The notes under the pieces were generated by a model. The model made no database searches, was not told the origin of the DNA, and saw only the letters and a program-made list of their open reading frames with translations. Positions 17,801 to 59,400 of a DNA stretch of 64,000 bases are shown piece after piece; the stretch's first letter is position 1, and each line of letters starts with the position of its first letter. A program made the position numbers and the translations under genes. This DNA comes from Lamellibrachia satsuma (Eukaryota; Annelida; Polychaeta; Sabellida; Siboglinidae): the NCBI GenBank assembly GCA_033239005.1, contig BSQZ01000001.1, positions 33,712,688-33,776,687 on the forward strand, read 5' to 3'.

Positions 17801-20800
17801 AATGTGGAAACATTGCGCATTATAAATGTATAATAATAATATTAGCACTTAAAGCACATGTAAAGTGCATCATTCTATAAAAAACCATTCAGCCACTGAA
17901 TCCTTAATGAGTCATGACAGAAGCAGTTTGATGCGAGATATACTGGAGACTTTGGGATGTGTCTTCCAGCACCCATGGACCCACCTTGCTCCTCCCAGCA
18001 CCCATGGACCCACCTTGTTCTACTCCCAGCACCCATGGACCCAATGTGTCCCTCTTCCAGCAACCATGGACTCACCTTGTCCCACTCCCAGCACCCATGG
18101 ACCCACCTTGTCCCGCTGTCTTCCGACTCCCGACACAGTTTCTTCCCGGGTGACATTTCTTTTGTGTCCTCCACCAGTCGATCATTCTTTCTTTTCATCT
18201 GTCCAAGACAATCATTAATTTATAACAGGAATAAGTGACCTTAAGAACGCTATCTCGATGAGCTGTATCTGTTTACAAAAACAAACAACAAAAAGTTAAA
18301 TCAATACCTGAAGTCTACACCCGGCTGTATACTTGAGTATTTGGCTCTTGATGCTCGGGGCATTATACCAGGGAGAATTTGTACACTCAAGTATCTGGCT
18401 CTCTGCGTCCTTACAGTGTCCTTATACTGTGTCTCTCTGCACCCTAACACGGCACCCTAACACCCTGTGCCGTTACACTGTGCTTTTACACTCTGTGCCC
18501 TTACTCTGCAGGGCTGGGGTAATAGTAATATGTAATAGTAACGGTAACAATTGTTCAAGTAATAGTAATAGATGGAACAGAATACAATGTAATAGTAATA
18601 GAAAGCAAAGTAATAGTAATTGAGCTATTACTTTGCTATTACAATTGAAATTCAATCACATTAAAATTCAATTTCATTGAAAATAATCAGACCAAAACAT
18701 TCTGTATTTTGACATACCGAGGGACTTGGATAAGCATCATTTAGCAAGATTTGCCATCTAAGCCAAAGGCCCAGACGGCAAGTGGACAAGGAAGCCATTG
18801 GCTTATCGAGAGTCCAACAATCTTCATCTACTTATAACCCGCCCTCCTGAGATATGTGTCAACCAACCATATTCACGCTGCTAGCAGTTACACAATCTGT
18901 AGACAATTTGTTCCATTCATTTATTGTCCTCTGTGAGAACGAGTGCTTCCTGATGTCCAACCTACATTGATCCTTTACTAATTTTACCTCATGTCCTTTA
19001 CGGTAGTTCTGCTATCCTTCTTGCGTGAGAAAAACATATTTCTATCAATATTTTTATACCCATTCAATATCTTAAAAACTTCAATCTGATCTCCTCTTAA
19101 CCTCCTTGTCTCTAGAGTTGTTAAACCACATTTTTTCGGGCATTCTTCATAACTAAGGTCTCTCAGTTCTGGGATCATTTTAGTTGCTCTCCTTTGTATG
19201 CGTTCAAGCGTATCTATATCCTTCTTACGATATGGTCTCCATGCTTGTATACATGAGGTCTAACTATTGCTTTATAAAGAGGTATAATTAACTTTTTACT
19301 GTCGTCCAAGTCATTGATATATATTAAGAATATAGGTCATAATACTGATCCACTCAAAACTGATTTCCAATTTGAAACTTCTCCATCTACTACAATTCGT
19401 TGTCTTCTGTCAGTCAGCCATTGTTCTATCCAGTCAGTTATGCTATACCCGATTACCATGGGCTTTTAATTTAAGTAGTAATCTTTGATGTGGCACTTTG
19501 TCAAAAGCTTTTTGAAAATCTAAGTAGATAATATCTACTGGCGATCCCACGTCTATCCATCATGTTCAGTCTTTCATATGCAGTTGTATTTATTTATTTA
19601 TTTCCCAACAATGGTTATAAAATGGTTTAGTATCCGAATCATGACAGTCAATGAACTATAGCACTATTGGCAGGAGACACTGTGACAGTGTGATTCCTGC
19701 ATGGCTAATTTGTTATTTGAAGCCAGGTCCACCAGCAATCTATCATTTTCACACAAGCCTATTCATTCATTCACTGAAGGATAAGGGTTCCAGGCTTCCA
19801 GCACTACACAGACTTTAACATCTGAATCAATTATTGCCATCTCCCAACCATAGCTGCCAACCTGCCATGCTGGGTAATGTTTGAACAAAATCCAGGGGCT
19901 TATACCAACTTTTCTGAGTTTTTCTCAGTTGGTAGCTAGCTTGCACACTATTGACCAAAAGTGTGAAAAACATCCTATCCTTGAGCCAATAATGAACTGT
20001 CCACCAAGCCGCAGCCAAACAGTATGAGTCTACTATTGAATAATCAGACTGTGTTATGTGATAATTTAATTAATTATACATCCATCAGTTAATTTAAATC
20101 TATGTAAGTGATTAAGTATGTTAAATGTTTAATCAAAAGAAAATAGTCCCGATGGAAAATGTAATAGTAATAGCTTGTAATGTAATAGTAACATTACATT
20201 GCCTTCAGCATGTAATAATAAAAAAGGAAACTAAGTAATAGTAACCTATTACGTTGCAATGTAATAGACCCCAGGCCTGTTACTCTGTGCCTTTTCACTG
20301 TGCCCTTACACTCTGTGCCCTTACTCTGCACCCTTTCTATTACCCTTACTCTGCACCTTACTCTATACGTCTTTACACTGTGCCCTTACTATTACCCTTA
20401 CACTGCACCCTTACTCTCTGCGCCCTTATACTGTCAACAAAATTTGCACTCACCCACACTTTGACAGGGGTCATCACTGACGGACAGGCGCTACTCGACC
20501 CGGGGTCAACATTCAAGTCACCTTGACCTTCCTCCCAAAGGTCATCATCATCGTTTGTGTCCACCTGTTGTTCTGCAGTCTCGTCCTCGCTGTGCTCCAG
20601 CTCCTCCTGTCTGTGGTCACGGGAACTACTGCTGCCACTCGTCATGTCCATATCCTCTTTTTCTCCTTCCTCCCCCTCTTCCTCCCCTCCATCCTTACTA
20701 CCAGCCTCATTGCTCGCTACCCTCCTACTCGACTGTCCGCGCATTTCCAACAGTGATGCCTGAACTTTCCCCTTCAACCCATCGTTGCGGCTGCACCTCA

Positions 20801-56498: not shown

Positions 56499-59400
56499 GT
56501 TCTTCACATTTGTACACATGACCAATTACAAACTGTTAACAAATATGGCAAATCAATAACATAACAATATTAGTTGTCATGAAAAACTGGTAAATACTAT
56601 TAAAAGGTCTTTGTTTATCACATTGATTTTAAAACCTACAGAAGAAGACTATTAAATAATTTATGGTTTAAATACCAGTGTTGTTGCTTTTTATCCCAAC
56701 TATAAAAGTCACAAGTCGGTTTTAAACATTAAATACAAACTCTTGCCCTTTCCTAAAGCCATTTCTGATTGTGAAAAGTTATTTAATTTATTGTTCACCA
56801 TTGGTTGTCTGACTCCACTGCAGGTAGTGCGAGTGGTCGATGGTGCAGCTCATATGCTCGTAGATGACTTTGTTGGATGTGGGTCAGAGCAAATCTTGCT
56901 CTTGCCATTGCCAGAGAGCCACACGACTGGACAACAAGGATGTCCATCTCGCTTCCTCCTTACAGACTTCTGCAGTTGCCATGCCAACACCCTTCAAGAG
57001 GTGACCAACTGAATGCATGCATTTATGGGATATCTACGTGTGAAATAAGAAACACTGTCCTTTTTATTAAATGTGCATTCTACCCTATAAAACCTTGGAT
57101 TCAAGTGAAAGTTTGTGCAGATTAAAATCATTTTCCAGCAGAACATGTCAACAAGTTGGGTAGTTAATTCAAAATAATATTTATATCTCGCCTTAATCTT
57201 CCCACTTGTGTGCACTGTTAAATTATTGTGAAGCATCAGGAAATCATGCTAATGTACATTTGACTAGGTAATTTGGACAAACATTGTGAACTTTGTGAAT
57301 GTGCCACTGTACTTTGTTGGACAACGTGTGTGTTGGTGATATTTACAGGAGTGACTCATTTTGTCATGAAGCAAATTTGTTGTGTCCTGTAGGAGGGTGA
57401 CGGAAGGACACATGGAGAAGTTGGGGAGAGTCTACAGGGAGTGGTGCGGGCTCTGGAGACAAGGGTGCAGGTAGGGGAAGGGAAAGAACCCACCAGCAAG
57501 GAGTGGGCACTGACGACGTGTATGCAGGTAGGGGAAGAGAAAGAACCCATCAGACAAGGAGTGGGCACTGGAGACAAGAGTGCAGGTAGGGGAAGGGAAA
57601 TAACCCACCAGACAAGGAGTGGGCACTGGAGACAAGAGTGCAGGTAGGGGAAGGGAAATAACCCACCAGACAAGGAGTGGGCACTGGAGACAAGAGTGCA
57701 GGTAGGGGAAGGGAAAGAACCCACCAGACAAGGAGTGGGCACTGGAGACAAGAGTGCAGGTAGGGGAAGGGAAAGAACCCACCAGACAAGGAGTGGGCAC
57801 TGGAGACAAGAGTGCAGGTAGGGGAAGGGAAAGAACCCACCAGACAAAGAGTGGGCACTGGAGACAAGGGTGCAGGTAGGGGAAGGGCAAGAACCCACCA
57901 GACAAGGAGTGGGCACTGGAGACAAGAGTGCAGGTAGGGGAAGGGAAATAATCCACCAGACAAGGAGTGGGCACTGGAGACAAGAGTGCAAGTAGGGGAA
58001 GGGAAAGAACCCACCAGACAAGGAGTTGGCACTGGAGACAAGAGTGCAGGTAGGGGAAGGGCAAGAACCCACCAGACAAAGAGTGGGCACTGGAGACAAG
58101 AGTGCAGGTAGGGGAAGGGAAATAATCCACCAGACAAGGAGTGGGCACTGGAGACAAGAGTGCAAGTAGGGGAAGGGAAAGAACCCACCAGACAAGGAGT
58201 GGGCACTGGAGGCAAGAGTGCAGGTAGGGGAAGGGAAATAACCCACCAGACAAGGAGTGGGCACTGGAGACAAGAGTGCAGGTAGGGGAAGGGCAAGAAC
58301 CCACCAGACAAGGAGTGAGCACTGGAGACAAGAGTGCAGGTAGGGGAAGGGAAATAAACCCGTCAGGGTGGTGACGCGGATAGACAGTGCAGTAGCAGTG
58401 GCAGGGCAGCTCATGAATGTGGCTAAGTTTTGGTGCATTATAGAGCGAGGGTGAGGGAGTGAGACAGCAGGAAGGAGAGACCACCACTCTGGCAGTCCTC
58501 GGCAGATAATACATTTATCCCCTGTGTGGGTGTTTGACTCCTCCATGTAGAAACATGAGGTAGAAAGTAGTGACAGGTTTCACTGTCTCCTTCAAGACTT
58601 CGTATTTCCAACTCTAGGTAGGCTGTTGAGCAGGGATTTGAACAAAGTATGTCCTGGTCACAAAGTGCATGTCATGTATACTTGGATATTTGTCATTATG
58701 TTATGTAATGTAGTTGCACAGTTTGTACTTGATCTTGGACCTGGAAGGAAAGAAAGAAAGCATGTTTTTTGAAGTGGCATGATAATTTCTTAAACAACCG
58801 TGCAAATCATCACTGCTCCAAATATATTATATTTTAACTTTTAAGCCATTTACACATGCCAACTTCATAACATTAGTATCATGTTCCACCACTAGGTGGG
58901 GTACAGGTCTCTGGCAGATGCCGAGCGACACAGCACACTCAAGTCAAGGTTGATTACAAAGTCGTGTGACGCCATTCGCAGGATGACATGTGTCACAAAC
59001 GTCCAAGTCCGACAGGTAAAGGTAACATGTGACACTGCAAACAATATTCAAACTACAGATTGATGTTTAAGAGAAGAATTTTATTGCGTGTTTGATTATG
59101 ATGCAACACATGTTTATACATGAGATAACAGCATTTAGTGGGACTGGTACAATTAAGAAATATATTCGTCACTTTTAGTAAGTTAATTTGATTTTCATAA
59201 GATTAGTAAGAAAATTGTTCTGTAAGATCATATAGAAAAACTTGCAGAAGATAAAATACTTTGATAATAGATGTGTACGATGACACAAGTAAGAACATTT
59301 ATCTTGTGTATGATGACACATTAATATGGTAACTGCCCTGGTACTGGTTTATAGCTGACGTAATCTTATTATTTATATATTGTTTTAGTGAAATGTGACA

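What the first reader, a model, noticed from the sequence alone, without database searches (positions are those of the whole stretch)
17965..58365. Splice-donor-spanning minisatellites recur across three genes' introns
In at least five introns the tandem unit is the last 8-30 bases of the upstream exon plus its own 5' splice site and some intron, and the array starts exactly at the exon edge: FBXW7 at 18107 (about 5 copies), MOSPD2 at 34776 (12), 38222 (37) and 48302 (about 22), and FANCB at 57470 (15). A sixth candidate is the 39-bp array at 39660-41712, and 21446-21561 starts at a donor. Unit lengths and sequences differ, so each arose independently. The result is introns carrying tens of competing donors. 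I know no described class with this behaviour. It may reflect a mechanism that duplicates DNA at exon-intron junctions (for example slippage or R-loop-associated breakage), or selection for donor redundancy.
Basis: partly seen in the sequence, partly recalled or inferred. Interest (0 to 1): 0.93.

Follow-up and report, generated by a model that had tools for sequence, protein, structure and literature searches.

The report
Exon-edge minisatellites ("mirages") in tubeworm
In a genome that is likely from a deep-sea tubeworm, short DNA blocks that straddle exon edges are repeated many times into the neighbouring intron, giving some introns dozens of spare splice sites that are likely ignored; the same oddity was described before in amphioxus, and in the genes sampled here it is several times more frequent at exon edges than at comparable places inside introns.

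Summary
In the window 6 of 28 donor junctions and 0 of 28 acceptor junctions recur in the adjacent intron. The "sixth candidate" (39658-41742) and 21442-21560 do not span a donor. "No described class" is wrong: tandem repeats spanning exon-intron boundaries are known in amphioxus as "mirages". This genome is not amphioxus: the MOSPD2 model is 85% identical, over half its length, to Ridgeia piscesae, a siboglinid annelid. Outside the window, exons of CCT and myosin genes show arrays at 7 of 67 donors and 5 (plus 1 doubtful) of 83 acceptors, against 11 of 722 and 41 of 3301 matched intronic pseudo-sites. So the pattern is not local, is about 5- to 7-fold over background in this sample, and occurs at both exon ends. 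Best reading: local tandem duplications covering an exon edge, in a repeat-rich genome; the exon-side copy keeps working and the rest is intron. Why edges are favoured is open. New member of a known kind, in a new phylum as far as my searches show.

The parts
17966..18114 (-). Donor-spanning minisatellite, 31-bp unit, 5 copies, FBXW7 intron after exon 18198-18107
   Evidence: TRF; copies; 8 exonic bases inside the array
18107..18198 (-). FBXW7 exon F3 (...KKLCRESEDSGT), donor after 18107
14402..14493 (-).
   Evidence: TRF
14485..14620 (-). FBXW7 exon F4 (...PPELSNWLKTFQ), donor after 14485
34280..34793 (-). Donor-spanning minisatellite, 42-bp unit, 12 copies, MOSPD2
   Evidence: exact unit pattern matched only here in the assembly
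34776..34872 (-). MOSPD2 exon M12, donor after 34776
36375..38269 (-). Donor-spanning minisatellite, 50-bp unit, 37 copies in register (36 keep GT), MOSPD2
   Evidence: 48 exonic bases inside the array
38222..38298 (-). MOSPD2 exon M10 (...EDSVFQGTLLSV), donor after 38222
47824..48312 (-). Donor-spanning minisatellite, about 23-bp unit, 21 copies (19 keep GT), MOSPD2
48302..48463 (-). MOSPD2 exon M2 (...WRKEMEVN), donor after 48302
57448..58354 (+). Donor-spanning minisatellite, 58-bp unit, 16 copies (all keep GT), FANCB
   Evidence: unit matched only here in the assembly
57393..57470 (+). FANCB exon B3, donor after 57470 (placed by frame and splice signals; lies inside the stretch of the model that matches solved FANCB)
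21442..21560 (-). 30-bp array, 4 copies, abutting but not spanning the donor of FBXW7 exon F1 (last base 21562)
39658..41742 (-). 39-bp array, 53 copies, inside MOSPD2 intron 8; donor-like motif in its units but no supported exon end
13568..13668 (-). 26-bp array, 3.9 copies, ending 4 bp before the acceptor of FBXW7 exon F5 (abuts, does not span)

Best explanation
These are exon-boundary minisatellites of the kind called mirages in amphioxus: a 22-58 bp stretch covering the last 8-48 bases of an exon and the first bases of its intron is present in 4-37 tandem copies running into the intron, and the extra splice sites are likely ignored. Each array was likely born locally by a tandem duplication (replication slippage or unequal exchange) that happened to cover an exon edge, and then expanded. 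However many copies are added, the exon still ends at the first copy, so purifying selection would hold that copy (coding bases plus working splice site) while the others become intron. Splicing probably uses the exon-side site almost always, because use of a decoy would nearly always break the reading frame. Shown here: the anatomy, units matched only at their own locus for two arrays, presence at both exon ends in unrelated genes, and an excess over matched intronic positions in the sample. Inferred: the duplication step, the splicing choice, and whether the excess at edges comes from more frequent birth or from longer survival.
For: Window: junction 20-mers recur within 500 bp of intron at 6/28 donors. 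Conserved proteins are obtained with the exon-side donor for the FBXW7 and MOSPD2 arrays. Outside the window, CCT and myosin exons: 7/67 donors (CCT 2/33, myosin 5/34) and 5/83 acceptors, 6 by rule (CCT 2/41, myosin 4/42), against pseudo-sites 11/722 and 41/3301; at matched GC 1.37 and 1.10 expected, 7 and 6 by rule observed. Units of two arrays were matched only at their own locus. Of 86 decoy GTs in the six window arrays, 78 would bring a stop codon, 6 a frameshift, and 2 stay open and in frame. Amphioxus reports describe tandem repeats over 5' and 3' exon boundaries, unit lengths from 10 to 160 bp, and RT-PCR suggesting normal splicing (passages).
Against: No transcript was examined, so the splice-site choice is not shown. 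The 5- to 7-fold excess at exon edges is not predicted by placement at random, so simple neutral birth is incomplete. A whole-genome pattern count gave no excess of arrays carrying AGGTAAGT three times (1666 matches against 1853 for the reversed pattern; counts dominated by a few long arrays and microsatellites). The window shows donors only (0/28 acceptors). The outside sample covers two gene families; exon ends were placed by HMM hit plus splice score, and of 29 junctions placed by exon pairs 4 donors but no acceptor were positive.
Confidence: 0.75

Rival explanations
1. A mutational process favours exon-intron boundaries (for example slippage at the sharp base-composition step, nucleosome edge or R-loop), so duplications are born there more often than elsewhere. 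It would act at both ends.
For: Excess of array edges at donors (OR 7.5) and acceptors (OR 5.1) over intronic pseudo-sites, not explained by local GC. A similar pattern exists in the distant amphioxus.
Against: Birth and survival cannot be told apart from one genome; no signature of a particular mechanism was found; the sample is two gene families.
Confidence: 0.35
2. A donor-specific mechanism: something about the 5' splice site itself (such as U1 binding or co-transcriptional R-loops) triggers the duplications.
For: Window 6/28 donors against 0/28 acceptors; pair-placed junctions outside 4/29 donors against 0/29 acceptors; pooled 13/95 against 5/111, p 0.025.
Against: Outside the window, which was chosen for this feature, donors and acceptors do not differ by the unified rule (7/67 against 5/83, p 0.37), and clear acceptor-spanning arrays exist (C72:2260821, C18:10447872, C20:6872143). 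No excess of the donor consensus in arrays.
Confidence: 0.12
3. Selection for donor redundancy: extra donors are kept because they back up or strengthen a weak splice site.
For: Most decoy copies keep GT (for example 36/37, 12/12, 16/16), slightly more than neighbouring columns in four of five arrays.
Against: Donors with arrays are not weaker; if anything stronger (window median 9.3 against 6.8, p 0.05; outside 8.4 against 7.7, p 0.42; pooled p 0.034). Using decoys would mostly bring stops.
Confidence: 0.06
4. Assembly artefact: repeats inflated or misplaced at these loci.
For: A 100% identical 295-bp copy of an FBXW7 exon-9 edge lies 2.1 kb away, which could be either very recent or an assembly error.
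Against: Copies within arrays differ from each other by substitutions, the same structure occurs on several contigs and genes, and exon structure is intact.
Confidence: 0.03

Closest known systems
Mirage minisatellites of amphioxus (Adh3, Canestro et al. 2002; globins, PMC3087553; PGBD5, PMC3902484)
   Different: Here most likely a siboglinid annelid, up to 37 copies at one donor, and a measured excess over intronic positions. Splicing and length instability were reported in amphioxus, not tested here. Canestro 2002 was not held and is known to me only through passages of the other two papers and recall.
Intron gain by tandem duplication of AGGT-containing exon sequence (Rogers 1989; Zhuo 2007; Gao and Lynch 2009; seen only as citations in PMC3087553)
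   Same: Tandem duplication carries a splice signal into gene structure.
   Different: Here an existing intron gets an array at one end; the array does not supply the acceptor in any of the six window cases, and no new intron was shown.
Internal tandem repeats altering human genes in segmental duplications (PMC2812944, outline only)
   Same: Minisatellite expansion in genes.
   Different: As far as the outline shows, the interest there is variation among paralogues, not arrays anchored at splice sites.

Membership tests
Mirage minisatellites (amphioxus) | Tandem repeat unit spans an exon-intron boundary | tested here: met
   6 of 28 donors in the window; 7/67 donors and 5/83 acceptors outside
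Mirage minisatellites (amphioxus) | Both 5' and 3' boundaries can be affected | tested here: met
   Acceptor-spanning arrays outside the window; none of 28 acceptors in the window
Mirage minisatellites (amphioxus) | Regular splicing is not disturbed | not testable with these tools
   No transcripts; only protein conservation supports the exon-side donor
Mirage minisatellites (amphioxus) | Copy-number polymorphism and somatic instability | not testable with these tools
   One assembly only
Intron gain by tandem duplication | New intron whose donor and acceptor both come from the duplicated unit | tested here: not met
   All six window arrays end 400 bp or more from the next acceptor (array ends, acceptors)
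Dispersed satellite or transposon-borne repeat | Unit found at many loci | tested here: not met
   42-bp unit (exact pattern) and 58-bp unit (DNA search) matched only their own arrays; the other four units were not tested, and the DNA search skips very common words

The most novel reading that the evidence does not exclude
Exon-intron boundaries are hot spots of tandem duplication in some animal genomes: in an annelid and, independently, in amphioxus, repeats are born at exon edges several times more often than elsewhere in introns, seeding introns with arrays of decoy splice sites and supplying raw material for new splice sites and new introns.
Probability: 0.35. Interest if true: 0.75.

Novelty: new member of a known kind. 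Interest (0 to 1): 0.5.

Why it matters
If the excess at exon edges holds genome-wide, a curiosity of amphioxus becomes a recurrent feature of animal genomes, and it gives natural introns with up to 37 near-identical donors. They would test how the spliceosome picks one site among equals, and whether boundary duplications feed intron and splice-site turnover.

Tried and rejected
Amphioxus as the source organism: rejected after (Ridgeia piscesae 85% over 49% of the query; next best 42%). The species itself is not identified.

Sixth candidate 39658-41742: a 30-bp in-frame mini-exon at its upstream edge was considered and rejected, because most aligned homologues join the flanking exons directly.

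Whole-genome count of arrays with three AGGTAAGT: no excess over the reversed pattern. Not decisive, since match counts follow a few long arrays and the reversed word overlaps microsatellites.

Donor redundancy for weak sites: donors with arrays are not weaker.

Pair-placed junctions alone (15 CCT and 14 myosin) gave 4 donors and 0 acceptors. The acceptor cases came from single-exon placement; four of the five were judged by eye against protein motifs recalled from memory, the fifth (C20:6872143) was not. C67:2006307 was counted by rule but set aside as doubtful (its nearer acceptor has 6 mismatches). For C18:10456432 the rule picked a wrong AG, but by eye from the sequence the likely acceptor is itself in the duplication. 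C61:3267029 (5 mismatches) was not counted. Counting 6/83 instead of 5/83 acceptors gives p 0.0009 against pseudo-sites and 0.57 against donors.

So the counts rest on CCT and myosin only. Of 99 exon hits in hand, 32 donor ends and 16 acceptor ends had no usable candidate or too short a flank. Myosin stretches were chosen for compact neighbouring exons.

The earthworm metallothionein paper (PMC12783039, passages) reports intronic minisatellites and exon duplications but no boundary-spanning arrays in the passages seen.
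Full report
What was checked. TRF on the window gives 95 rows; 60 arrays picked from them by hand (period 10 or more, overlapping rows taken once) cover 38% of the 64 kb. Genes were modelled by hand from frames, splice signals and phases: FBXW7 (11 exons, minus strand), MOSPD2 (13 exons, minus) and FANCB (5 exons, plus), each possibly incomplete at its ends. 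Homologues support the FBXW7 and MOSPD2 junctions at the arrays. For FANCB, 7 database proteins all cover exon B1, one reaching into B2, and residues 305-504 of the model, which include B3, match the solved Fanconi anemia group B protein 7kzp_B (E 4.5e-13).

The arrays. Six donors are spanned: FBXW7 18107 and 14485, MOSPD2 48302, 38222 and 34776, FANCB 57470. The array starts 8, 9, 11, 48, 18 and 23 bases inside the exon. GT is kept at the donor place in 4/5, 4/4, 19/21, 36/37, 12/12 and 16/16 copies (for 38222 the printed list also held 10 out-of-register matches, set aside; one search counts 37). The junction 20-mer recurs within 500 bp of intron with at most 3 mismatches at 6 of 28 donors and 0 of 28 acceptors (one-sided Fisher 0.012). 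Random intronic 20-mers recur at 37% of 3000 draws and exon-internal ones at 16 of 900, at the same threshold: introns are array-rich, so the telling measure is array edges at exon ends, below.

The 39-bp array at 39658-41742 has no supported exon end, and 21442-21560 abuts a donor without repeating it. The 14402-14493 array was missed. [quoted passage not shown] passages of PMC3902484 add PGBD5 and troponin C. The 2002 Adh paper is not held.

The organism. The MOSPD2 model is 85% identical over 49% of its length to a Ridgeia piscesae protein, the next hit being 42%. Ridgeia is a vestimentiferan, Siboglinidae (PMC9921365, abstract seen in the listing; passages). The window lies in a 735-Mb assembly of 279 contigs. 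So this is most likely a siboglinid annelid, not a cephalochordate. My paper searches (capped listings of a partial library) listed no paper that I recognised as reporting boundary-spanning arrays in annelids.

Does it occur elsewhere in the genome? CCT, myosin-head and SLC6 exons were located in the assembly and flanks fetched; only CCT and myosin ends met the flank rule. With one rule (top-scoring splice site per exon end, 20-mer recurring within 300 bp with at most 4 mismatches), 7 of 67 donors and 6 of 83 acceptors are positive; one acceptor is doubtful, leaving 5. Matched intronic GT or AG sites next to unique sequence give 11/722 and 41/3301 (one-sided Fisher 3.5e-4 and 0.005); random positions next to unique sequence in the fetched CCT and myosin stretches give 1.4% and 1.2%. 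GC-matched expectation is 1.37 and 1.10. Donors and acceptors do not differ outside the window (p 0.37); pooled with the window they do (13/95 against 5/111, p 0.025), but the window was selected for donors. Within the window the pseudo-site control is thin: donors 0/29, acceptors 5/128.

How it likely works. The 42-bp and 58-bp units were matched at no other place in the assembly, so these arrays were likely born in place. In any tandem expansion over an exon edge the exon ends at its own first copy and all others fall in the intron. Of 86 decoy donors 78 would bring a stop, 6 a frameshift, and 2 would stay open and in frame, so decoys are presumably hardly used. That is an inference: no transcript was seen. 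Donors with arrays are not weak, which argues against redundancy. The 5- to 7-fold excess at edges is not explained by GC and needs either more births there or longer survival; one genome cannot separate these.

Limits. Two gene families, hand-built or HMM-placed exon ends, one assembly, no RNA. The fetched stretches used for pseudo-sites hold some unannotated exons. The AGGTAAGT array count found no excess (1666 against 1853).

Verdict. A real feature, present in unrelated genes across the assembly; the described kind (mirages) in a new phylum as far as my searches go; the boundary excess is the part worth following.

Noticed in passing
window 6006-6339 and 8129-8484: A 295-bp stretch identical to the acceptor side of FBXW7 exon 9 (about 108 exonic bases plus intron) sits 2.1 kb away in another intron, with a further 67 bp at 98.5%. 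Very recent duplication or assembly error.
   Followed up: partly
window 55952-56058: A 30-bp in-frame minisatellite inside the coding part of FANCB exon B1, 3.6 copies.
   Followed up: no
window 59889-64000: A 20-bp array of over 200 copies runs to the window end, starting about 200 bp after the last modelled FANCB donor.
   Followed up: no
window 14633-16736: A 26-bp array of 81 copies ends about 13 bp before the FBXW7 exon F4 acceptor; on the sense strand its unit looks like a run of pyrimidine-tract plus CAG acceptor motifs.
   Followed up: no
window 27185-29044: Two open frames with reverse transcriptase domains (PF00078), remains of a retroelement between FBXW7 and MOSPD2.
   Followed up: no
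L057 (G000:C18), acceptor of exon 10447872: Clear acceptor-spanning array of about 45-bp units in a myosin gene; several acceptor cases exist outside the window although none is inside it.
   Followed up: yes
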